Below are positions 53 to 16,663 of a stretch of 27,238 bases of DNA, in pieces (the first letter of the stretch is position 1; every line of letters starts with the position of its first letter). Origin of the DNA: a virus. The translations under genes and the position numbers were made by a program. The stretch spans positions 1 to 27,238 of IMG/VR virus record IMGVR_UViG_3300032820_000089, one strand, 5' to 3'. Below the pieces are notes generated by a model that did not search any database, was not told where the DNA came from, and saw only the letters and a program-made list of their open reading frames with translations.

Positions 53-3000
53 CTATTCCTGTTTATTGGATCTTACTATAGGAATCCTTTTTGATAACTG
101 TTCATATCTAGCTTGGATCATCTCTGCTCTGAGTTCAGGATCTTCTGTCATGAGATTCTTCCAAGCTTGATTCCTAATCAATCTCATGACTCTTCTGAAT
201 ACTGACTTCTGCATCTCCGTAGGCATATGCGACCATTGATCATTTTCCGTTATTTTCTTTAGGATGCCTTCTACATCTAGTCTTCCAATGTAATTATTAT
301 ACTTCTGATATGCATTATTAAGTTTTATTCCATTGGGATCTCTTTCATCTATCTTGATATTTCTCAAGTCAACATCAAACTTATCTGTGCTAGGACCACC
401 AGCACCATATAGAAGTTCACTTATTTTCAGCATAGGATTCTCCTCATCTGGTACTGCTTCTGAGTACTTGAATGGTGAGAAGTGTTCCAAAGCTCGAAAT
501 CCTCCGGGTTTCCATGACTCATGCTGTTCAACAGGTTTCCCAGTTATCGTATTGTGCTCAACTCCAAAGTAATTCCATAACCCCGGAAATGCTGCCTGCC
601 AAGCACTCATGATCCCTTCTGTCTTCCTTCTGTAATTATCATTCAAGAACTCCATGCCGGGTATGGAAGAAAGAGGGTTCTGAGAGGCAATTCTAGGTAC
701 GAAACTCTTTACCATATTGGTCATGAAGTATTCAGCTTTCCCGCCTCCTTGACTCCAAGCACCTGCTGCATCTAGAGCACCCTTCATGTATGCTCCATCA
801 AGGACGTTTACCATTGCCATAACCATGAAGCCTACAATGTCTTGTCTCTGGTCATCTGTTAGATGGTCAGATAACTGCACATAATCTGCTGCTGCTATCA
901 AGAACATCTGCCAAGGATCACCTCTATCTATACTTATATATTTCTTGGTTCCATCCTCTGCTTCTATTTCAAAGGATTCTGCTAACCACCCTCCTGTCTC
1001 CATGATCCTTCTTTGATTTGAATCTGGAGGACCAGTTCCAATTAGGCGTACCTGACCAAGACCCTCAATCTTTATACCATCATTGGCTAGGATCACTGCT
1101 GATCCATAGAGTGTGAGTGCAGTTGATGCCTTACCTACAGCATTTGCTCTCCTTACACCTCCAGCTAACCAATCGTCTCTTATTGTTCTAAGTGCAGGAT
1201 TGAGTGCTGCTACAAGTTCTCCTATTCCCGGTATGAATGTAAGAGGTGCTAAGGATCTTCCAATGAATCCTCTGAATAGCCAAGCAGGAGTTCTGACAAA
1301 TGGCATGATTAGAGCCACAGAAGGATGCTTGTTCTTAGCAGCATTAACAGTGGCAGCAAATCCATCTACCAAAGGTTCTGCAAAGTTTACCTCTCTGGCA
1401 TATTGCATAGCCTCATCATTGATACCTCTACCCATCTTGTCGAAACCTGCCTCAAAATTGTCTACAACATATTGGGCAATTAGATCCTTTTGGGTCTTCA
1501 CATCAAACTTATCCATAGCCTGCTTTAGAAGTATCTCCCTCCACTTGGCCCTGAAAGAAATCTGATCATAGAACTCTTTCGATACCATTCGTAACCAACT
1601 AGGCCACCTTACAAAACGCCTTCCTATAAAATCTATAGTATTGCCTAGTGCATTATTCATATCATCAGAAACAAATAAAGACCTTGCAGCATTACCTAGA
1701 TCAGAGCGTGGTTTGTCAAACCCATAGCTTCGCATCTCTCCTCTCTCTGCATTCATGTACACATCCCCACCCTTTTTCTTGCCAAAACCGGGGAATACTT
1801 GTCCTATCCTCTCTGTTGTTATGGCATGCTGTGCTGTCTCTGTATGTCTGATTGTAGGATCTAGCTGTGGAATTTCAGTCTTCATTACTTTATGGGCAAT
1901 GGCTAAAGATTCTCTTATTGCATTTGCATACCCATAATAGAGACCTGCACCATCCTTTATGGACTGCATGTTTGCAGTGACAACTCCTCCAGCAATCCTC
2001 TCAGCAGGTAACAACAGAAGGTGAATACCTGTAGATACAACATCAATAGTCAGAGATTTCATGGAGGATAACAGACCATTTATCCTGAACTCATGAACCA
2101 TATCCCAAGCTAGCTTGCTCTTACTCATCATCCTCAAAGCTTTGAGACTAACCATGTTATTTGCAGGATTTCCAGCAGCAATAATATCTCTGGCAATCTT
2201 CAATGACTGCTCTTTACCTCCCTTGGACCTGATGATATCTTCCATTATGGATGGATCTAGACCTGCTACCTTTATGTTCCCTGCTTGAACTGTTCTTGCT
2301 GCTCCTCTATTTATTCTCAGTACACTTGTGTAAACATCTGCAAGCTTGTCTATAGCCAAGTGTAGCTTGGCAACATCTGCATCAGAACCTCCTGCTACTG
2401 CCTTATGAGCCATTGCATAGATAGACTTGGCATAAGTTGCCATGAGAATCTTTGCTTTTATCATGTGCATAGGGAGATCTTGAGTCTGATCAGCTATATT
2501 TTTTAAGTGTTTATGAACTAAACTATTCTCAACTCCCATTATATTTGCTATATCATCTAGCTGAGTATTTGTCTGTTGAGCTAGTTCTTCTTTTGCAGCA
2601 GCAAGTGTTTCCTCATTTGTGAGGACATCTCCGGGTTTCCTTGTACTTCTTCTAGTTTCAACACTAATGGTAGATGGACCTTGCTTGGGACCAAACCTAT
2701 CCATCAATTTCTCTTCTTCAATGAACTTACCAACTGCCTGCATGACATCTTCTACTTCCGTACCATCATCCCATGCCCTCATATTCATTCCGATTTCATC
2801 AACAATTCTTTCTACAGGGTCTCCTTTAGCAATTCCTGCATCTATAACTGCTCTGAGTGCTAGACGATCTTTACCTGTAAGGAATACAGGAGTACCACCC
2901 TTGCCAAATACCTGATCGAATAGCTGTTTGGTATCAGGTTGTATGGAAAGCTTCATAGGAGAGTTATGGACATTCCTATATAGCTCTTCCATCCAATCCT

Positions 3001-6000
3001 TCATCTTTCCAAAGTGAGGATTCAGTCCTTCCAATGATGTTCCAGCATCAGTCAGCCACTTCTCAAACTCCCTAGCAAACTTTTCTTCCATGTGTCTTGA
3101 CCACACCCCGTTCTTTATTCCTAAAGACTTTTCTAATGCTCGCAACTGCTCTTTAGGCATGTTCTTTCTGAACAAGTGTCCTATCTCATGGATTACAGTA
3201 GTGAAATCTGAAGGTTCATACTTTCTTCCATACTTGTCAAAGAAGGATCTAGTAATGAGGTGTATTCCTTGCTGACCCTCTTCACCAAAGGAGGTAGCAC
3301 CCCTTATTGCCCTATTTTCAGACAGTTGGGCAAGTACCATAGCAGTATTATCTATGTCACTATGCCCTGTATATCCTTGAATCTTATCCCACATCCATTG
3401 ATGAAGGATATGAGCATCCATATTCTTCAATCGAATGACATCGTCTGGCAATATAGTACCATCAGAAGGTATGTTGGCTTTTATGTGATCCAGCAAAGTT
3501 TGATTCTGATCTTGAAGTCTTTGGATCAGGTCTCTCTCATACTGATTGCCTTGGAAATGTACCTTTAGTGCTCTGTTGAGATCTTCAAGTCTTTTGATTT
3601 CCCCCTTGATTGCACGTTGCCCTCTAAGTTGTCCTGTTATCAAGAACCTTTGTTGAACAGAATCCATTGTGAAGGTATCACCAACACCTATATAATGCTT
3701 TAGGAAACCTTCTTTCCTTCTTTGTACCCCCTTGATATCTCGAATTATTTTCCCTAGAACCTTAGTATCATAGTCCTCACCAAACTGTTTCATGTGGTTG
3801 TTGACTTGATCTGTAATACCCTGAAGATCTGTGATGCCTCCTTGCAGTGACTTATGGGCTTTATCTCCTTTCACATTTCTATAGGCTGGAACACTGCTTA
3901 TCGGTTCAGGTCCTGCCTCTCTCATCCATGCAGGAAGGATATTTAGCCTTCTGAATGCTTCTCTACCACCTGCTGCTGCCCTCACTTGAACCAGTTCTTC
4001 CCAAAGTTCTCCTAAGTATACGTTGTGATTAGACAAGGCATCTAGAGCAACCTTGCCAGTGGGACTCATCAACCATAGTGAAGCAAGATCTTCAGGACGA
4101 ATTTTATCTTGTGCTGCTTTAGAAGAAACTGAATCTGAAAAGAAGGATTGATTTAAATACTTATTACCGCCAAGGTTACTTGTATCCTCTACCCAATCTG
4201 TAAACAGGACTATCTTGTCCAGTGCATCTGCCGATGTATTACCCTCTAGTTTCAATCCATGCTTTGCTTGAGACAGCATCTTACTGGTATTCAATGCACT
4301 ACTAAGCTTCACCCCCTTTGTTTCCCTATAGTACATAGGATTTCCTACTGCTCCTGCTCTAATCCTACCTACTACTGTTGCCCAAGATGCTCCACCTGTC
4401 TGTTGAGATGCAGCAGTTAGTAAGGTTGCCTTGATAGTATCTCTTACTGTAAGTTCACCATTCATAAGTTTTTCTCTTTGAAACCTTATGAATTTGGACA
4501 TCTTGTCTAGATATTCAGGAGGTGCTTTCCCTAGGAATGCAACCATATCTTCCATGTTGTTGAACTTCACAGAATTGAAGAAGTGCATGAGTTCATCAAG
4601 TGTTGTCTTGTGATCCAATGCAGTGGCAGGACCATAGCCAGTTTGTACTCCAGCTTTTGCTAATATTTCTTCTTGTCCCGGTGTAATGTTCCCATCCTTA
4701 TCCTTCATTGATTCTACATTGACACCGCCTTTTGAAGCAGGTCTTACGGAAGGATGTCCTTTTCCTTCATCAGGTATGCCTCCCCTTTGTGCTAAGTAAG
4801 ATCTATTTCCATCAAGAGGATGGAAAGGTTCTGGCACTGCTACAGGATCATAGTCAATCCTCCAATAATCACTGTCTACAGTTCCAATACTCTTTCTGTC
4901 AAATCCTACACCACCGGGACGGGTGACATATTCAAACTCTTCTTCAGTTCCCTTTAGGAAAAATACATTCTCCCCTTCTTTTACAGTTTCATTATTATCT
5001 AAAACATGAATGCCTGTCCTTTGTCGTATCTTTCCTTCATACTCTCCTGATAAATAATGAATTCCTTCTGAAGTGACTGCTATATCCTGACCGTTATCTC
5101 TTGCTATCTGCTTGGCTTGATCTGATAACATACCGGGAAATACAAATACATCATACTCAGAACCATCTGCTGCCTGTCGCGTATGAACTGCATAGCCTTT
5201 AGGAAGATTTAAAGTCTTTGCAACTTCTTCTATGTTAGGCATATCCTGTGAGGAGATAAGCGTATAGGGAGTTCCATCCCCCATGGGACCTTCTCTCCCT
5301 TTTGCCAAATCAGCTTTGTCCCAGAATCTATTTGGATCAAACTCAGGCAGAGTAAAGGCCCCTCTAGGCAAGGGCATGTTGAGAGTGGCTTCATTAAGAC
5401 CTTGTTGCAAGAATTGATTCAAGTCCTCAAACTTACCTGTCTTGGCAAGCGTCCTCATTATCTGCATGGTGACTTGCATCTTGGCAGGATTCATTCCCGG
5501 TACTAATGTAAGGTACTGCCTGAAGATATTCTCATCATGGAGATGAAGAACTGCTCTGCCCTCAATTACTTTGCTATGTAGTAATCTGAAGTCTTCTGCA
5601 TTAGTTCCAGCTAACTTTGCTGCTTTCTCATACTTACCTTTTGCAATAAGATCATTAACTCCTCGCCCTCCTTTGAGTATGGGTATGAGGAGAACTTCAG
5701 CAACCATACCTATTCCCATACCTTCTAAGACATTCTTCATCCTTCCTTCTAGCCATGCATCACTTTCATCTGCTGCTAAGTATCTAGTGACCGCATTATT
5801 CAACAAAGGCACTTCTGTCATGAAGTTTGACAACCTCTGTTCGTGCTCTTTGAAAGCAATAAGATCTGCTACAGCACCTATACTCATTCCCCTTCGGAAT
5901 TTCTGCCAAGTGAAGAATCCTGCACCAGCAGTATCTTTATTTGAAGCCCACTTTACGAACTGTCCTGCCCTAGATCCTGCTGCGTATGCACCTAATCTAG

Positions 6001-6613
6001 TACCTCCAAGTAGAGCACCAGCAGCACCTCCAGTACCTACAATTGCTGCATATGCCATGGCAATCTGGGTGATTCCTCCAATGATATCCCCCAACCAAGT
6101 CCTTGGCTTGAACTGATCATTCAGATCAATTTCACCAAACCTGAATCCTCCTTTTGCATTCAGTCCTGTAGCTTCAGCAAGCTTGATAGTACTGTTAGCT
6201 ACATCAGTTCCTAGATCGAGAATAGATTCAATGAATCCCAATCCACCATACGCTACCCCCCTTGCAGCATCCTCAAAGTAACTGACATCCTCCTGAGCTT
6301 CAGTTGGAAATGTTCTATCATCCCCATAGAAGTTCGAGTCTGTTCTATTATTAGAAGGATCTAAAGGGGAAGGTAATCCTCTTCCTTCTGCTGAAGGCAT
6401 ATGCTTTGGAAGGGGTATGGATGGACCTTCTGCATCAATGTCTTCAGGATCTTGGAATGGGTGAGGTTCTTCTGATGGAGGTGCAATTGGTAGCCAATTT
6501 GGAATAGGAGGAGTTGCTTCAGGTACTACAGGTGCTACAAGTGCTTCCTCTTCTTCCTCTTCTTCAGGAACAAGAGGACTGTCAATTGTAGGATCTAATT
6601 TATTCAGTTCCAT
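53..6613 (-). CDS. Internal virion protein D (T7 gp16-like), giant, with HExxH metallopeptidase-like motif
   Basis: 2186 residues (T7 gp16: 1318), the largest gene here; expected to be ejected into the host and to help translocate DNA. Residues 1-85 are acidic and proline-rich, with a run of seven Glu. Residues 175-205 form a Gly/Ala-rich hydrophobic stretch (GGITQIAMAYAAIVGTGGAA). In the middle is VIHEIGHLF, an HExxH zinc-site motif (H1142, E1143, H1146), followed by EEKFAREFE, where E1176/E1177 could be the third ligand. This resembles peptidase domains of phage polyvalent proteins. The C-terminal half has hydrophobic segments near 1528-1548 and 1766-1810 with MPFVRTP (1770-1776), a motif I associate with large ejected virion proteins. 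I do not see the N-terminal lytic transglycosylase of T7 gp16. An AAAGG site precedes the ATG. Confidence 0.88.
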   Translation of the reverse strand: MELNKLDPTIDSPLVPEEEEEEEALVAPVVPEATPPIPNWLPIAPPSEEPHPFQDPEDIDAEGPSIPLPKHMPSAEGRGLPSPLDPSNNRTDSNFYGDDRTFPTEAQEDVSYFEDAARGVAYGGLGFIESILDLGTDVANSTIKLAEATGLNAKGGFRFGEIDLNDQFKPRTWLGDIIGGITQIAMAYAAIVGTGGAAGALLGGTRLGAYAAGSRAGQFVKWASNKDTAGAGFFTWQKFRRGMSIGAVADLIAFKEHEQRLSNFMTEVPLLNNAVTRYLAADESDAWLEGRMKNVLEGMGIGMVAEVLLIPILKGGRGVNDLIAKGKYEKAAKLAGTNAEDFRLLHSKVIEGRAVLHLHDENIFRQYLTLVPGMNPAKMQVTMQIMRTLAKTGKFEDLNQFLQQGLNEATLNMPLPRGAFTLPEFDPNRFWDKADLAKGREGPMGDGTPYTLISSQDMPNIEEVAKTLNLPKGYAVHTRQAADGSEYDVFVFPGMLSDQAKQIARDNGQDIAVTSEGIHYLSGEYEGKIRQRTGIHVLDNNETVKEGENVFFLKGTEEEFEYVTRPGGVGFDRKSIGTVDSDYWRIDYDPVAVPEPFHPLDGNRSYLAQRGGIPDEGKGHPSVRPASKGGVNVESMKDKDGNITPGQEEILAKAGVQTGYGPATALDHKTTLDELMHFFNSVKFNNMEDMVAFLGKAPPEYLDKMSKFIRFQREKLMNGELTVRDTIKATLLTAASQQTGGASWATVVGRIRAGAVGNPMYYRETKGVKLSSALNTSKMLSQAKHGLKLEGNTSADALDKIVLFTDWVEDTSNLGGNKYLNQSFFSDSVSSKAAQDKIRPEDLASLWLMSPTGKVALDALSNHNVYLGELWEELVQVRAAAGGREAFRRLNILPAWMREAGPEPISSVPAYRNVKGDKAHKSLQGGITDLQGITDQVNNHMKQFGEDYDTKVLGKIIRDIKGVQRRKEGFLKHYIGVGDTFTMDSVQQRFLITGQLRGQRAIKGEIKRLEDLNRALKVHFQGNQYERDLIQRLQDQNQTLLDHIKANIPSDGTILPDDVIRLKNMDAHILHQWMWDKIQGYTGHSDIDNTAMVLAQLSENRAIRGATSFGEEGQQGIHLITRSFFDKYGRKYEPSDFTTVIHEIGHLFRKNMPKEQLRALEKSLGIKNGVWSRHMEEKFAREFEKWLTDAGTSLEGLNPHFGKMKDWMEELYRNVHNSPMKLSIQPDTKQLFDQVFGKGGTPVFLTGKDRLALRAVIDAGIAKGDPVERIVDEIGMNMRAWDDGTEVEDVMQAVGKFIEEEKLMDRFGPKQGPSTISVETRRSTRKPGDVLTNEETLAAAKEELAQQTNTQLDDIANIMGVENSLVHKHLKNIADQTQDLPMHMIKAKILMATYAKSIYAMAHKAVAGGSDADVAKLHLAIDKLADVYTSVLRINRGAARTVQAGNIKVAGLDPSIMEDIIRSKGGKEQSLKIARDIIAAGNPANNMVSLKALRMMSKSKLAWDMVHEFRINGLLSSMKSLTIDVVSTGIHLLLLPAERIAGGVVTANMQSIKDGAGLYYGYANAIRESLAIAHKVMKTEIPQLDPTIRHTETAQHAITTERIGQVFPGFGKKKGGDVYMNAERGEMRSYGFDKPRSDLGNAARSLFVSDDMNNALGNTIDFIGRRFVRWPSWLRMVSKEFYDQISFRAKWREILLKQAMDKFDVKTQKDLIAQYVVDNFEAGFDKMGRGINDEAMQYAREVNFAEPLVDGFAATVNAAKNKHPSVALIMPFVRTPAWLFRGFIGRSLAPLTFIPGIGELVAALNPALRTIRDDWLAGGVRRANAVGKASTALTLYGSAVILANDGIKIEGLGQVRLIGTGPPDSNQRRIMETGGWLAESFEIEAEDGTKKYISIDRGDPWQMFLIAAADYVQLSDHLTDDQRQDIVGFMVMAMVNVLDGAYMKGALDAAGAWSQGGGKAEYFMTNMVKSFVPRIASQNPLSSIPGMEFLNDNYRRKTEGIMSAWQAAFPGLWNYFGVEHNTITGKPVEQHESWKPGGFRALEHFSPFKYSEAVPDEENPMLKISELLYGAGGPSTDKFDVDLRNIKIDERDPNGIKLNNAYQKYNNYIGRLDVEGILKKITENDQWSHMPTEMQKSVFRRVMRLIRNQAWKNLMTEDPELRAEMIQARYEQLSKRIPIVRSNKQE

Positions 6614-9600
6614 TAGTCATAACCTTTGGGCCAAGTTGTGGTGGAGATATGGCAATACTAGCTCGAAGCATAGCCCGCCGAAGCCTCTCATCTTCAAGTC
6701 TTTTATCTTCCTTTATTCTCTTGGCACGATCTTTAGGTGATTCAAGTGCTTGGTTAACCATACCCATATAGGCATTGCTGCCTATTTTAGCTATTGTTCC
6801 TACTCCTCTATTCATCCACTGTATCCATCCTATTGGATCTATTTCTGCTAGAGTCCTCACCACTGATAAGTCTGGATAATCCTTTGATTGAAGACGATGG
6901 GGAAACTCTATATTTTCAGGAGTCCATTCAGGGTCTATAAGCTTCAACTTATCAACTTCTCTATCAAATACCTTTTTCCAGTTCTTCCTTATAGTTTCTC
7001 GGGATAGTAGAACTCCATTTTCATCTTGAATAACCCATCCATATTCAGCCAACCACGGCTGTGGTGCACCTTGTCCTTTATTCCATTGATCAAGAATAAC
7101 TTGGTGTCCCTCTGGTTTATCTGACAGTTTTTTCAAGGTAGCTGGATCTATTTCCACCATGAGAAATCTAGGTATGGAAAGTAGACTCTCAAGATTCTTA
7201 GCATATGGATACTCAGATCTGTTTTGCTGCTTATCAAATCCAAGAATTATATTGTCTGGGCTGATTGCCGAAGTAGGTATTATACGGGATCTACCTAGCT
7301 CCAAGTCTCTTTCATTCCTGAACCCACGAAACTTTGGTAGTATGCCCACTTGTGCCACATTCCTAGATGGCATAGAACGAGCTATAGGATAGTCAAGAAG
7401 ACTTACTTGTTTGTTCTTCAGTCTTTCTATCTCTTCACTAATAGAGCTTTCATTAATACCCTGTTTTTGTAGTAAAGAGTGCATCCTAGTAAAGTAATTT
7501 TTACCTGTATTACCTCCTCTTACTATCACAAATTTTGCATTATCAGAAAGACTATCAAAAGTAGATCTATCATGGGTAAGCCAACTCAAATATTCGGCAT
7601 GATCTCTCTCTATGTTTCCTATGGATGTAGCTTTGTCCCGTGGTATTGACTCTCCATCTGGACCTATAACTGACCCACCGTATACTCTAAAATCTTTAGT
7701 TTCTGCTGTGTATCTATTTATAGATGTGAGGGGAAATACAGGAATAACAGTGTTTTCTACATCAGTTACTCCTGACCCTTGAAGATTTATTAATGAATTC
7801 CTCCATAACTCTGCTCCTGCTTCTGCTGCTCTCCGATTCAAGGGACTAAGACTACTATCTTGTAATTGATCTAAAATTCTATTATACCCATTCCATACTG
7901 CTCGAATAGAAAGATTTCTACCTTCCTTTCTAAGACTTAGAATATGTTCTATTGTACTAGTAGTATATTGTCGTACTGCATTATCATCTGAATCTGGGGA
8001 AGCTACCCTACTATTTAGAAGGTCAAGCTCATTTACTAAGTAAGATATATTATGTCCAGAGGTTTCTTTATCTGGAACTGCTTGGGTTGGTGGAGATACT
8101 TCATCTGATATAGGTGGGGTTGCTTCACCAATGAGTCTATTAAGGCTATCAAGTATATTGTAGTTACTGGGTCCCTTAAATATCTCAGTGCCATCAGAAG
8201 AAATGACAGTAGTGGGTGCTCTTGGATCTACAGGAAGAACCAGATCTCCAGTATCTCCATAATAGGTGTTGAGAGGATACTTTCTTATTGCTGCCTCAAG
8301 TCCCCTAAGCTCAGCTGTATCTCCAAAGAAGTTAGATAAAAGATCCTTATGCAGAACCAGATCTGGATTCCAATCTTTACGAAGAGGACTATCTGGATCA
8401 CCTTCATTCAGTCTTATAAGGTATGCATCAAAATGAGAGGATATTGTCTCCTGAATTCTAGCAGTACTTGCTATTCTTTGGAACTTAGTAAGACTATCAA
8501 GTCTTGCAATATTAGCAGCTTGGTTTGTACCCGATTTCCCCGTACCTCCCGTAACGTAATCAATACCACCAGATTCTGCTAAAGATTTTTCTAGGTTATT
8601 CCTTTTATCACCAATAGGAAGATCTTTAAGGGATTGGCTGTAAGCAGTTGCTGCTAGAACTCCAATAAGTTGGTTGGTCAGTGCTTTAGCTTCGTCCGAA
8701 TTACTAAGTATAAGAGCTTCTGCCTTTGATCCAAATCTCTTTGCCATAGCATCTTGCGTAGCTTGATCTTTAACTGCATATAATGCCCATTGATTCTGTG
8801 CATCTGCCAAGTCAGCAGTAGTTGTTGCTGATCTTATGAGATCACTAGTATCACTAGTAGCATTAGCTATTTCTTGCGTAGTGAGTTCAGCAGGATTGGA
8901 GTAGTTTCTTGTCAGGAAATTTGCAGCTTCTTCTATAGCTTTCATGTCAGACCACCTTGGAGTACCATCCTCATTTTTCCAAGCTTTCAATGCTCGGACT
9001 AAAACTCTCGGATCTGAATTTCCAGCAATGAGTTCCATGACTTTGGGGTTCTGTGATACCGAAGCAACAATGTCATCTGGATCTGAAGTATTGTCTTCAC
9101 GCAACTGTGTGGCTATTCCCTCATTAAGTAGCTCTAGCTCATGTATCTGAGCTATCCCATATGTATCCTTTGTCCATATAGGTCTACCCTCTATCTTAAC
9201 TCCCTTGATTAACTCAAAAGCAGTATCTATTCGATCAATAATATCACTTATAATGGAAGGACTTTCCCCTGCTTTATATGCAGTTTTTAGTCTAGTTTGT
9301 TGTATCTTAAGAAATCCATCAAACCCCTTAATCATAGAAGCTCTGGTATGTAGACCCCAAGGGGATGGAGACTTATTAGAGATATTTTGCACCAATGTGT
9401 TAAAGTTGTCTTGAGCCTCTTGGTCCTTTACTATTCCCTGAGCAACAGCCGGATATGCAAGTGGATTAGCTCTAAGTACTGGACCGGGATGAACTAGTGC
9501 AGCACCATGTTGATCTCGAACTTCAGTACCATCATCACTAATAAGTAACGGGTTCTCTAGCTTGCTTTCCCCGCTAGGATCTGTTGCCTCCATAAATATA

Positions 9601-10205
9601 GAGGTGGTTTCAGCAGATTGTGCTGCTGCTATGCTACTTTGTAGGACTCTGTTATGCACATACCTGAAAGCTCTTTCTTTCTGACCAACATACTTATTTT
9701 CTTCCAAGCTGAAAGATTCCCGTGCTATAGGATTACTGCCCCATGGTTGACTATTCAGCCATGCATCTCTTTGCTCTTTAATATATTTTAGTGCTTCATC
9801 TTGAGTCATTTCAGCAGTATTACCAAGCTGTTGTGCAATCTGTTGGGCTTTAGGTTCCCATGTACCTGCTCCTCTTTCACCCATAGCCCTGAAGTACGCC
9901 TCTTCCAAGTGTCCCTGACCAAATGCCCCCTTGCCCTTACCTTTTAGAATATCTTGATTTGCATCCTGAAAAGCTAGACTTCTACCTAGAGCAGAAGACC
10001 ATTTAATATCCTCCTTCTCTTTTGTCATGCGAAGTTTGTGTACACCTTCTCCTAATTCTTTCATTCCCTCCAAGATATCTGTAGGAGTTCTTACTTGTTC
10101 TGTTGGTTGTAGCCGATCAGTACGACCTCTGTAACCTACCTTTGTTCCTCTTGCTTCGTTACGCAAAATATACTGTAGTTGTCGTAGGTCTCTGGCATTA
10201 GCCAT
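6600..10205 (-). CDS. Internal virion protein C (T7 gp15-like), very long
   Basis: 1201 residues against 747 for T7 gp15. In T7 this protein forms the periplasmic part of the DNA ejection conduit with gp14 and gp16. Here it begins MANARDLRQLQYILRNEARG and continues as a mostly helical, polar protein without signal peptide or membrane helices. Lower-complexity spacers occur (for example PPISDEVSPPTQAVPDKE around residue 700). I see no enzyme motif. Assignment comes from gene order, size class and general composition, since gp15 proteins diverge quickly. The start overlaps the gp14-like stop (TAATG) and the end overlaps the gp16-like gene by 14 nt. The extra 450 residues have no obvious domain identity. 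Confidence 0.82.
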   Translation of the reverse strand: MANARDLRQLQYILRNEARGTKVGYRGRTDRLQPTEQVRTPTDILEGMKELGEGVHKLRMTKEKEDIKWSSALGRSLAFQDANQDILKGKGKGAFGQGHLEEAYFRAMGERGAGTWEPKAQQIAQQLGNTAEMTQDEALKYIKEQRDAWLNSQPWGSNPIARESFSLEENKYVGQKERAFRYVHNRVLQSSIAAAQSAETTSIFMEATDPSGESKLENPLLISDDGTEVRDQHGAALVHPGPVLRANPLAYPAVAQGIVKDQEAQDNFNTLVQNISNKSPSPWGLHTRASMIKGFDGFLKIQQTRLKTAYKAGESPSIISDIIDRIDTAFELIKGVKIEGRPIWTKDTYGIAQIHELELLNEGIATQLREDNTSDPDDIVASVSQNPKVMELIAGNSDPRVLVRALKAWKNEDGTPRWSDMKAIEEAANFLTRNYSNPAELTTQEIANATSDTSDLIRSATTTADLADAQNQWALYAVKDQATQDAMAKRFGSKAEALILSNSDEAKALTNQLIGVLAATAYSQSLKDLPIGDKRNNLEKSLAESGGIDYVTGGTGKSGTNQAANIARLDSLTKFQRIASTARIQETISSHFDAYLIRLNEGDPDSPLRKDWNPDLVLHKDLLSNFFGDTAELRGLEAAIRKYPLNTYYGDTGDLVLPVDPRAPTTVISSDGTEIFKGPSNYNILDSLNRLIGEATPPISDEVSPPTQAVPDKETSGHNISYLVNELDLLNSRVASPDSDDNAVRQYTTSTIEHILSLRKEGRNLSIRAVWNGYNRILDQLQDSSLSPLNRRAAEAGAELWRNSLINLQGSGVTDVENTVIPVFPLTSINRYTAETKDFRVYGGSVIGPDGESIPRDKATSIGNIERDHAEYLSWLTHDRSTFDSLSDNAKFVIVRGGNTGKNYFTRMHSLLQKQGINESSISEEIERLKNKQVSLLDYPIARSMPSRNVAQVGILPKFRGFRNERDLELGRSRIIPTSAISPDNIILGFDKQQNRSEYPYAKNLESLLSIPRFLMVEIDPATLKKLSDKPEGHQVILDQWNKGQGAPQPWLAEYGWVIQDENGVLLSRETIRKNWKKVFDREVDKLKLIDPEWTPENIEFPHRLQSKDYPDLSVVRTLAEIDPIGWIQWMNRGVGTIAKIGSNAYMGMVNQALESPKDRAKRIKEDKRLEDERLRRAMLRASIAISPPQLGPKVMTNGTE

Positions 10206-10816
10206 TAGTCAGAACTCCTCGCACTAAATGCAGGTCGAGTACTTCGTGCTGATTGACGATGTGTGGGTGTAGAAGAAGTGGGGGTTTTTCCACCTCCTAA
10301 ACCCGCTATTGCTGCTGTGTGTGCTTCCAGTGATTTAAATGTCTTATGCATAACAAGCCCTGAAACAGCAGCATTAGCTACACCCATTATTTGTGAAGTT
10401 ACACTTGAAGTAGGTAGCTGAGATATCTGACCTGCTGCTGCAAGTGATATACCCTCTAGCTTATCTAGACCTTCAAGTTCAATCATATCATCTGCCTTGG
10501 TGAAAGACCATTCAGCTTCAGCAGCATCTACATACATCATTCTTTCTAGTTCATTCCTAGGAGTACCCATCACTTCTGCGAAGTTAGCCCTTAGTGTTCC
10601 TATGTTCTCAGCAGTCTTGACCCTTTCCTTGAACCTAGCCCGTGCATTCTCAGCAGCAGCAGTCAAGGTTTCGATGAGAGACCCTGCCATCTGGTTGTTA
10701 GCTTGAGTGGCTATTGCTTCTGCATTAGCTCTTGAAGCTTTATTCTGTGACATGCTAGCCATCATGCCGCCTGCGGCTGTCGTTGTTGCCATAGCAATTG
10801 ACAATGCATCACACAT
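10205..10816 (-). CDS. Internal virion protein B (T7 gp14-like)
   Basis: 203-residue core/ejection protein (T7 gp14: 196), expected to be packaged inside the head and to enter the outer membrane during infection. The N-terminus has an alanine-rich, weakly hydrophobic segment (ALSIAMATTTAAGGMMASM). It is followed by a long helical region (NNQMAGSLIETLTAAAENAR, then FAEVMGTPRNELERMMYVDA) and a Ser/Thr/Arg-rich disordered tail. GGAG lies about ten bases before the ATG. It starts five bases after the gp13-like stop and shares TAATG with the gp15-like start. The order 13-14-15-16 is exactly that of T7. Confidence 0.88.
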   Translation of the reverse strand: MCDALSIAMATTTAAGGMMASMSQNKASRANAEAIATQANNQMAGSLIETLTAAAENARARFKERVKTAENIGTLRANFAEVMGTPRNELERMMYVDAAEAEWSFTKADDMIELEGLDKLEGISLAAAGQISQLPTSSVTSQIMGVANAAVSGLVMHKTFKSLEAHTAAIAGLGGGKTPTSSTPTHRQSARSTRPAFSARSSD

Positions 10817-10821
10817 GGATA

Positions 10822-11340
10822 TTAGACTCCTATACGAACATACTCATGGAACTCAACATGAGGATCATGAAAAAATAATGGGTTGCCAGTTCTTTTGAAA
10901 CCTGTAGCTTTCAGCCAACGATGATGCTCCTTGTTCCTACTGTCAGTAAAGCAGTTCAGCTTAGTGAACTCCAATGAGGCTAACCAAACAATGGATATTC
11001 TGATAAAAGCAGACTTATGCTTGTCTATCTGGGTTGTAGCAAGGCACCATATTGAACTTCCAATGTTACCCCATATAACCCAAGGGCCATCATCACATAC
11101 ACCTACCCAACAAGGGTCTTCCAATGACATTGCTGCTTCTAAGCCTTCTTCAGGAGTATTACCACTTGATGCTTGTATCTCTTCCTTGTCCTCATTCCTC
11201 AAGTTGGCTACCAAGTAAGCAATATCATTCCTACTAGCCCTTCTGATATGACCATTACCTCCCGTATCCACGATATGCTTTGGGACTATAATGGGCTGTC
11301 CATTCGGAACTGATAATATGGTGTGGGATGTGAGAATCAT
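10822..11340 (-). CDS. Internal virion protein A-like (T7 gp13-like, acetyltransferase-like fold)
   Basis: Up to 172 residues. The core resembles T7 gp13 and GNAT acetyltransferases: a start-like RRASRNDIAYLVANLRNEDK, a middle PWVIWGNIGSSIWCLATTQI (T7 GGNCGDQCWFVTSDQV), and a C-terminal FTDSRNKEHHRWLKATGFKR (T7 VGNTSHIRFLKTIGAVF). T7 gp13 is needed for virion assembly; catalysis has not been shown for it and is not claimed here. The start is unresolved. The only in-frame ATG (11340) overlaps the nozzle gene by 86 nt and has no ribosome site, and a GTG at 11271 has none either. A strong GGAGG with TAATG at the nozzle stop is out of frame. The coding body from about 11245 down is secure. Confidence 0.8.
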   Translation of the reverse strand: MILTSHTILSVPNGQPIIVPKHIVDTGGNGHIRRASRNDIAYLVANLRNEDKEEIQASSGNTPEEGLEAAMSLEDPCWVGVCDDGPWVIWGNIGSSIWCLATTQIDKHKSAFIRISIVWLASLEFTKLNCFTDSRNKEHHRWLKATGFKRTGNPLFFHDPHVEFHEYVRIGV

Positions 11341-16086: not shown

Positions 16087-16350
16087 TCACTCTTTTATCT
16101 CTCTGATAGTATCATTTAGAATAGCTATCTGATTCAGATCATGACGTACATAAGAGGGCCAAGGACTCCTATCCAATAGCCACTCCTTAGTACTGTCACT
16201 GAATTCTATAGGTTGAAGCCATTCTAAATCATCATTGATAGGAGAGCACTTACATCCTATCAAGGATATCACTGTCATTACTAGGAGTATTACGCTTAGA
16301 AATCTTGGCAAATATGGCAGATCTCCTGATGGATTCTTTGAGTGATGCAT
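16087..16350 (-). CDS. Putative outer-membrane lipoprotein spanin subunit (Rz1-like)
   Basis: 87 residues with a lipoprotein signal: charged N-terminus, hydrophobic core (FLSVILLVMTVISL) and a lipobox LIGC with the lipidated Cys at residue 33. The mature 55-residue part (CKCSPINDDLEWLQPIEFSD, then TKEWLLDRSPWPSYVRHDLN) is short and proline-containing. 'W..PI.FSD.T..WL' followed by 'WP' is a pattern I associate with small lysis lipoproteins next to holin genes in environmental phages. The gene begins inside the Rz-like gene (101-nt overlap, different frame), with GGAAAGGG just upstream. The best interpretation is the o-spanin partner. An unrelated lipoprotein, for instance one acting in exclusion, is less likely given the neighbours. 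Confidence 0.65.
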   Translation of the reverse strand: MHHSKNPSGDLPYLPRFLSVILLVMTVISLIGCKCSPINDDLEWLQPIEFSDSTKEWLLDRSPWPSYVRHDLNQIAILNDTIREIKE

Positions 16351-16459
16351 TGACCCTTTCCAAGCGTCCCTTCTGTACCAAGGTTCTGCTATTCATGTAG
16401 GAGAATAGGGATTGGAATGCTGATAGTGCTAGGGTCACAATCCTAATAAGACCAAGCAT
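16250..16459 (-). CDS. Putative inner-membrane spanin subunit (Rz-like)
   Basis: 69 residues: an N-terminal hydrophobic segment (LIRIVTLALSAFQSLFSYM) followed by a basic helical region (QKGRLERVNASLKESIRRSAIFAKISKR) and a polar end (NTPSNDSDILDRM). This is the plan of a short i-spanin: membrane anchor at the N-terminus and a coiled-coil-prone periplasmic part. It starts seven bases after the holin candidate stop, with GGGG and AGG upstream. Its last third overlaps the lipoprotein gene below in another frame, the arrangement known for Rz/Rz1 pairs, which together fuse inner and outer membranes at the end of lysis. The assignment is by architecture and neighbourhood, not by clear sequence similarity. 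Confidence 0.6.
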   Translation of the reverse strand: MLGLIRIVTLALSAFQSLFSYMNSRTLVQKGRLERVNASLKESIRRSAIFAKISKRNTPSNDSDILDRM

Positions 16460-16465
16460 AGCTAC

Positions 16466-16663
16466 CTACCCCTCATTCTGTGGAGGAGTGATAGCTTCAA
16501 CCTTATTGGTTGCTATCTCTAGCTTATCCAATGCAGGCTTCAGTGCCTCTAGGATCTTGTCATCCTTCTTAGTGGGAGTGATCTTGACCACGATGGCAAT
16601 CAAGCCATACGCTGCAAGAAGTCCCGCACAAATTTCAGTCCAATTAGAAAATAACCATTCCAT
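16466..16663 (-). CDS. Small one-span membrane protein, holin candidate
   Basis: 65 residues with one hydrophobic helix (about 12-29, AGLLAAYGLIAIVVKIT), a short N-terminus starting MEWLFSNWTE, and a helical charged C-terminus (DDKILEALKPALDKLE). No signal-cleavage site is seen. Small one-span proteins with a charged helical tail beside spanin genes are usually holins, which permeabilise the inner membrane at lysis; T7 gp17.5 is 67 residues with one span. AAGGA stands nine bases before the ATG. The two genes directly downstream look like spanins, which supports a lysis role, but the location between scaffold and capsid differs from T7. A non-lytic membrane protein remains possible. Confidence 0.6.
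   Translation of the reverse strand: MEWLFSNWTEICAGLLAAYGLIAIVVKITPTKKDDKILEALKPALDKLEIATNKVEAITPPQNEG

What the first reader, a model, noticed from the sequence alone, without database searches (positions are those of the whole stretch)
3140..3200. HExxH metallopeptidase-like motif inside the gp16-type ejection protein
The sequence shows VIHEIGHLF at residues 1140-1148, with EEKFAREFE about 30 residues later, a layout typical of zincin peptidases that use two His and a Glu. T7 gp16 instead carries an N-terminal lytic transglycosylase, for which I see no motif here. Inference: this phage may deliver a protease into the host envelope or cytoplasm with its DNA, or use it to process virion proteins. 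Similar domains occur in phage polyvalent proteins.
Basis: partly seen in the sequence, partly recalled or inferred. Interest (0 to 1): 0.6.

Follow-up and report, generated by a model that had tools for sequence, protein, structure and literature searches.

The report
Protease domain inside a phage ejection protein
A T7-like phage carries, in the middle of the giant protein it squirts into the bacterium ahead of its DNA, what looks like a zinc-dependent protein-cutting domain; such domains are known from other phage proteins, but here the domain appears to be swapped repeatedly in and out of this injection protein, as interchangeable cargo would be.

Summary
The minus-strand 2186-aa ORF (53-6613) has one HExxH, at aa 1142-1146 (window 3176-3190), with E1177 35 residues on. 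It is a gp16-type ejection protein: gp13/14/15-position genes precede it, and its C-terminus matches annotated 'internal virion protein D'. Eight annotated phages from unrelated lineages carry the same domain with invariant H, E, H and E. Of 233 retrieved loci, 208 keep HExxH, 22 HExxxH, 3 neither. All 68 aligned members hit phrog_9880; no Pfam family covers the domain. The AlphaFold2 core puts HExxH and E1177 on successive helices behind three strands. Its best solved look-alikes are anthrax lethal factor and PPEP-1, zincins, though weakly (Z 4.8, 3.7). This matches the polyvalent-protein metallopeptidases of Iyer et al. 2017. Less expected: of 79 sampled T7-type gp16s, 7 carry this domain and 8 others a second HExxH type in the same inter-block region; carriers do not form one clade (AU p 7e-46), so the module behaves as accessory cargo. 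Peptidase activity is likely; the substrate (host protein or gp16 itself) is untested.

The parts
53..6613 (-). gp16-type internal virion (ejection) protein, 2186 aa
   Evidence: Follows gp13-, gp14- and gp15-position genes; phrog_6651 'internal virion protein' E 1.8e-21; C-terminus matches annotated 'internal virion protein D' of Pelagibacter, Roseobacter and Desulfovibrio phages
5618..5893 (-). N-block, aa 241-332, shared with gp16s that lack the protease
   Evidence: 45% identity to HTVC200P gp16 164-258
2570..5617 (-). Extra region, aa 333-1348, between N- and C-block; 1016 aa here against 115 aa in HTVC200P gp16
   Evidence: blastp mapping
2876..3364 (-). Zincin-like metallopeptidase domain core, aa 1084-1246 (modelled stretch)
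   Evidence: A1/A2/A4 alignments, phrog_9880, AlphaFold2 model mean pLDDT 77.7, 91-94 around the motif
3176..3190 (-). HExxH, H1142-E1143-I-G-H1146: predicted zinc ligands H1142 and H1146, general base E1143
   Evidence: Invariant in A1; 208 HExxH + 22 HExxxH of 233 loci
3062..3085 (-). E1177-KFAREF-E1184: E1177 predicted third zinc ligand, E1184 second shell (or the reverse)
   Evidence: Invariant in A1, which was found without this pattern; on the next long helix of the model
3221..3256 (-). 12-aa insertion (aa 1120-1131) before the HExxH helix, absent from the other 101 aligned relatives
   Evidence: Column table
245..2569 (-). C-block, aa 1349-2123, gp16-type C-terminal part
   Evidence: HTVC200P 374-1113, HTVC011P 521-1143 (E 1.8e-28), ProddE, Syn5, CRP-361
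6600..10205 (-). gp15-position protein, 1201 aa; no Pfam, PHROG or NCBIfam match, no HExxH
10205..10816 (-). gp14-type internal virion protein
   Evidence: PF24072 T7_gp14 E 1e-8
10822..11340 (-). gp13-position protein
   Evidence: phrog_308 'internal virion protein' E 3.4e-25

Best explanation
A zincin-like metallopeptidase domain (aa ~1084-1246) of the phage polyvalent-protein type sits between the N- and C-terminal blocks of a T7-type gp16 ejection protein. Zn2+ would be held by H1142, H1146 and (most likely) E1177, with E1143 as general base. As part of gp16 it would be packed in the head and ejected ahead of the DNA. Because gp16s occur with it, without it, or with a different HExxH domain in the same region, it is best read as accessory cargo that most likely cleaves one or more host proteins at the onset of infection. 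Shown here: the motif, its conservation, the chassis, and recurrent gain or loss. Predicted: the fold. Inferred: zinc, peptidase activity, ejection, target. My probabilities: domain identity 0.9; active peptidase 0.8; host target rather than self-processing or another role about 0.5.
For: Invariant H, E, H and E in eight distant phage proteins; 208 HExxH + 22 HExxxH of 233 loci. Model: three strands, HExxH helix, then Glu helix at pLDDT 91-94, the layout described for polyvalent MPTases (PMC5512222). Structural neighbours: the top 14 rows are all lethal factor (Z up to 4.8) and PPEP-1 is at 3.7. BFVD neighbours are large phage polyvalent proteins (E 8e-6, TM 0.66). gp16 synteny and homology. 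Seven annotated gp16 homologues lack the domain. In 79 sampled gp16s, 7 carry this type and 8 others another HExxH type. A single clade of carriers is rejected (AU p 7.4e-46). MPTases borne by gp16 are scattered among those of other polyvalent proteins (7 changes, at least 5 forced). In L017 and L037 the excess over a plain gp16 (1467/1441 vs median 1225 aa) is little more than the protease, so no other effector is left to release.
Against: No activity, zinc or virion data exist. Z 4.8 is weak by the tool's own guidance, and Foldseek alone gave no significant PDB hit. N4 vRNAP carries an HExxH domain yet is packaged unprocessed (PMC5512222), which leaves room for a structural role. Nothing here identifies a host target. 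The window row is a long branch in both trees. The AU test used LG+G4 because the mixture-model test did not finish.
Confidence: 0.6

Rival explanations
1. Self-processing: the peptidase cuts its own gp16 chain, in the head or after ejection, separating N- and C-blocks or freeing the extra region.
For: Proposed by Iyer et al. for polyvalent MPTases; P1 DdrB is processed before packaging (PMC5512222). The window has some 700 further extra residues (aa 350-1040) that could be released. The domain is central, between the blocks.
Against: N4 vRNAP and the plasmid proteins ArdC and TraC1 travel uncut although they carry such domains. In L017/L037 the extra part is little more than the protease. Related gp16s lack it.
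Confidence: 0.3
2. Virion maturation protease: it acts in trans on other virion proteins during head assembly.
For: It is encoded in the structural cassette; packaging of gp16 would give access to capsid and core proteins.
Against: The structural genes around it (tail tube, scaffold-type and major head protein) have ordinary PHROG matches, and related T7-type phages manage without the domain. A required maturation protease should not be gained and lost so often.
Confidence: 0.08
3. Inactive fold: the HExxH domain is a structural or packaging module without catalysis.
For: In N4 vRNAP the region with the HExxH domain is required for encapsidation (PMC5512222). A few relatives have broken sites (L178 HDLGY, L048 without HE).
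Against: The His pair and general base are kept (as HExxH or HExxxH) in about 99% of loci, while positions conserved at 88-99% elsewhere have drifted in the window (A1190 for G, S1193 for P, S1163 for W), as expected if the active site itself is under selection.
Confidence: 0.12

Closest known systems
Zincin-like MPTase domains of phage polyvalent proteins (Iyer et al. 2017, PMC5512222)
   Same: HExxH helix then Glu helix behind a three-stranded sheet; HExxxH variant also present; within giant phage proteins; same phrog_9880 family as domains in proteins that carry LPD22, LPD23, PBECR1/5 and GNAT domains
   Different: The chassis is a T7-type gp16, a protein that the main text of that paper does not mention; its supplement was not readable, so a listing there cannot be excluded
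Large proteins at the end of the internal-virion-protein cluster of Bordetella phage BPP-1 (Bbp10), Xanthomonas phage CP2 (ORF24), Pseudomonas phages AF and UFJF_PfDIW6, Cobetia phage Carin1 (gp32)
   Same: Homologous domain, invariant active site, same place after the internal-virion or lysozyme genes
   Different: All five carry LPD22 at the N-terminus, which the window lacks; blastp finds no T7-type gp16 C-block in them
Phage N4 virion RNA polymerase, C1 domain (aa 2124-2375; PMC12633501)
   Same: An HExxH zincin-like domain inside an ejected giant protein; the motif and the preceding strand align in register
   Different: Only marginal sequence similarity (hhalign E 0.0055, probability 6.6%); attached to an RNA polymerase
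T7 gp16 / marine Autographiviridae internal virion protein D
   Same: Gene order and, for the marine ones, N- and C-block homology
   Different: T7 gp16 has SLT; the seven marine and Desulfovibrio-phage gp16s examined have no HExxH and no match to the domain profile
Anthrax lethal factor and PPEP-1 (M34-type zincins)
   Same: Best structural neighbours of the predicted core (Z 4.8 and 3.7)
   Different: No detectable sequence relation; a shared fold says nothing about substrate

Membership tests
Phage polyvalent-protein zincin-like MPTase | HExxH on the first C-terminal helix | tested here: met
   H1142-E1143-x-x-H1146 on model helix 54-68, pLDDT ~90
Phage polyvalent-protein zincin-like MPTase | Conserved Glu on the following conserved helix | tested here: met
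   E1177 (and E1184) invariant in A1, on model helix 90-109
Phage polyvalent-protein zincin-like MPTase | Three-stranded sheet preceded by a helix | tested here: inconclusive
   Three strands are present; the preceding helix appears only in the longer model at low confidence
Phage polyvalent-protein zincin-like MPTase | Sequence kinship with domains in polyvalent proteins | tested here: met
   phrog_9880 for all 68 aligned members; homologous domains in proteins with LPD22/LPD23/PBECR
Phage polyvalent-protein zincin-like MPTase | Other effector domains in the same chain | tested here: inconclusive
   No Pfam, PHROG or NCBIfam effector domain elsewhere in the window protein, although aa 350-1040 is unassigned
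Phage polyvalent-protein zincin-like MPTase | Zinc-dependent peptidase activity | not testable with these tools
   Needs purified protein
T7 gp16-type ejection protein | Last of a gp13-14-15-16 cluster downstream of the tail tube genes | tested here: met
   phrog_457 tail protein, phrog_308, PF24072 gp14 in order
T7 gp16-type ejection protein | Homology to annotated internal virion protein D | tested here: met
   E 6e-21 to 2e-28 over 480-830 aa of the C-block
T7 gp16-type ejection protein | N-terminal SLT transglycosylase, as in T7 | tested here: not met
   Absent in the window and also in HTVC200P, CRP-361 and ProddE, so not a defining feature of this wider group; membership is claimed for the wider group only
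T7 gp16-type ejection protein | Present in the virion and ejected | not testable with these tools
   Environmental contig
M34-type zincin (lethal factor / PPEP-1) | Common fold | tested here: inconclusive
   Z 4.8 over 102 residues at 4.1 A; best unrelated row 3.8
N4 vRNAP C1-type HExxH domain | Sequence-profile kinship | tested here: inconclusive
   hhalign E 0.0055, probability 6.6%

The most novel reading that the evidence does not exclude
The stretch between the N- and C-blocks of T7-type gp16 is a cargo bay. Unrelated or distantly related HExxH metallopeptidases are inserted, exchanged and lost there, so that many T7-like phages inject a protease effector with their DNA, each matched to a host target.
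Probability: 0.35. Interest if true: 0.68.

Novelty: new variant of a known kind. Interest (0 to 1): 0.45.

Why it matters
T7's ejection machine is the best-studied injector of short-tailed phages and is usually treated as a DNA tunnel plus a wall-cutting enzyme. If part of the wider gp16 family (15 of 79 sampled) carries exchangeable proteases, the same machine is also a protein-delivery device used in the first moments of infection. That can be tested with one point mutation, and it would give a concrete system for asking what phage-injected peptidases cut.

Tried and rejected
Single-sequence scan of IMG/VR with the domain: no relative found. DNA-level search of phages: none. Pfam, NCBIfam and PDB sequence searches of the domain: nothing convincing. 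'The protease replaces the transglycosylase' was rejected because gp16s without either exist. Chance origin of the motif was rejected by conservation. One shared origin of gp16 plus protease was rejected by the AU test; the same test under the mixture model did not finish. The 10-row gp16 C-block alignment was too diverged for a collection scan, and a first DNA pattern was too degenerate; a narrower one worked.

Full report
What is there. The window is a 27,238-base virus record with no other contig. It reads, on the minus strand, as a T7-like phage: RNA polymerase, primase/helicase, DNA polymerase, portal, scaffold-type protein, major head protein, tail tube, then gp13-, gp14-, gp15- and gp16-position genes. 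The last gene (53-6613, 2186 aa) holds the finding: VIHEIGHLF at aa 1140-1148 and EEKFAREFE at aa 1176-1184. A random protein of this size and composition has an HExxH in 5.8% of shuffles, so conservation has to carry the case.

Conservation. Plain tblastn of aa 1050-1260 against annotated phages gave weak matches (best E 1e-5), mostly inside very large proteins, several of which close the internal-virion-protein cluster of unrelated podoviruses: Xanthomonas phage CP2, Pseudomonas phages AF and UFJF_PfDIW6, Bordetella BPP-1 Bbp10, Cobetia Carin1, an archaeal-virus record, and cyanobacterial phages. Aligned with the window (18-24% identity), eight of them share eight invariant residues: H1142, E1143, H1146, E1177, A1180, E1184, F1201 and Y1212. 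That search was not conditioned on the motif. Pattern-based scans of IMG/VR and of genomes (conditioned mostly on the E[QK][FW]A[RK] stretch, so not independent for E1177; some in one scan on the stretch up to HE) gave 233 loci: 208 HExxH, 22 HExxxH, 3 neither. Some loci are repeats of one contig. All 68 members of the first alignment match phrog_9880; no Pfam family covers them. The window is divergent at several positions that are conserved at 88-99% in the family, yet keeps every predicted active-site residue (the alignment used there was itself chosen to have the motif).

Fold. AlphaFold2 on aa 1084-1246 with 101 relatives gives three strands, a helix with H1142/E1143/H1146, a short helix, a long helix with E1177 and E1184, and a further helix; mean pLDDT is 77.7 and 91-94 around the motif. 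Re-alignment of the highest-ranked PDB chains gives anthrax lethal factor in the first 14 rows (Z 4.8, 102 residues, 4.1 A, its C-terminal region) and PPEP-1 at 3.7, against 3.8 for the best unrelated chain. This is a coherent but weak signal. Iyer et al. 2017 also linked phage MPTases to lethal factor, by profile comparison. In the viral structure library the significant hits are large phage proteins, one annotated 'Crystallin beta/gamma motif-containing' (E 8e-6, TM 0.66).

Chassis. blastp splits the protein into an N-block (aa 241-332) and a C-block (aa 1349-2123), both shared with the internal virion protein D of Pelagibacter, Roseobacter and Desulfovibrio phages. Between them lie 1016 residues here against 115 in HTVC200P. 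None of seven such annotated gp16s (1181-1415 aa) has an HExxH or matches the domain profile. T7 gp16 has the SLT transglycosylase; HTVC200P, CRP-361, ProddE and the window have none. At least four other environmental gp16 lineages have the same N-block/protease/C-block order (L017/L037/L052, L023, L038/L050, L072/L077), most with T7-like tail tube and gp13 genes upstream.

Recurrence. A DNA pattern from the C-block, independent of the protease, retrieved 79 gp16s with their N-terminal side present: 7 carry this domain, and 9 others carry an HExxH upstream of the C-block. Eight of these 9 belong to a second type (HE[IL][WL]H, then DE[YFW] about 80 residues on), which also matches the first HExxH of CP2; L261 and CP2 have both types. 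On a C-block tree of 66 rows the window-type label needs 6 changes (at least 3 forced by well-supported branches), and one supported clade holds a type A, a type B and a plain gp16 side by side (L077, L349, L316). Holding all ten carriers in one clade costs 252 log-likelihood units (AU p 7.4e-46, LG+G4). In the domain tree the gp16-borne domains are scattered among those of other polyvalent proteins, and the window's most similar domain (38%) lies in a contig of a Capsulimonas MAG. The window row is a long branch in both trees, so its exact place is unsure.

How it most likely works. The chassis is built to be packaged and ejected (established for T7 gp16, PMC8954989; inferred here). A module that comes and goes, and can be exchanged for another HExxH type in the same region, is unlikely to be needed for ejection itself. 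In L017 and L037 the extra length over a plain gp16 is little more than the protease, so releasing some other effector is not needed there. I therefore favour an injected peptidase acting on host protein(s), at about even odds against self-processing and the other rivals together. The activity itself is inferred from the intact active site.

Comparison with the known. Zincin-like MPTases in phage polyvalent proteins, with the same layout and the HExxxH variant, were described by Iyer et al. 2017 (PMC5512222), who also proposed the self-processing and effector roles. The N4 virion RNA polymerase structure shows an HExxH domain in an ejected protein (PMC12633501). A review of ejection proteins mentions no protease (PMC8954989). 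The T7-type gp16 chassis and the repeated exchange are what I did not find described; the supplement of the 2017 paper was not readable, so priority is uncertain.

Noticed in passing
L349, L340, L339, L286, L281, L364, L302, L319 (gp16 ORFs): A second type of HExxH domain (e.g. HELWHxLSRYLPKADV ... DEYFAEEMTDAF) sits between the N- and C-blocks of other T7-type gp16s.
   Followed up: partly
L261 ORF aa 387 and 680; CP2 ORF24 (L002) aa 926 and 1265: Two HExxH domains of the two different types in one chain, in opposite order in the two proteins.
   Followed up: partly
L032, L036, L039, L041, L043, L044, L053, L056, L061 and others: HExxxH (HE..GH) instead of HExxH in 22 of 233 loci, the variant mentioned by Iyer et al. 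2017.
   Followed up: partly
L178, L048, L225: Domain copies without a detected HExxH (L178 reads HDLGY, L048 lacks HE); possibly inactive copies.
   Followed up: no
window 3494-5566 (aa 350-1040 of the gp16 ORF): About 690 residues of the extra region have no detectable homologue or family; possibly further cargo.
   Followed up: partly
window 16087-16663, minus strand: Three small overlapping or adjacent ORFs between the head and scaffold genes (one with a membrane segment, one with a lipoprotein-like LIGC); they look like a lysis cassette, but family searches give no named match.
   Followed up: partly
annotated relatives (PP438410, PP438424, OP947163, NC_005357): Homologous giant proteins are annotated 'lysin', 'methyltransferase' or 'crystallin beta/gamma motif-containing protein'; the protease domain is not mentioned in the annotations seen.
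   Followed up: no
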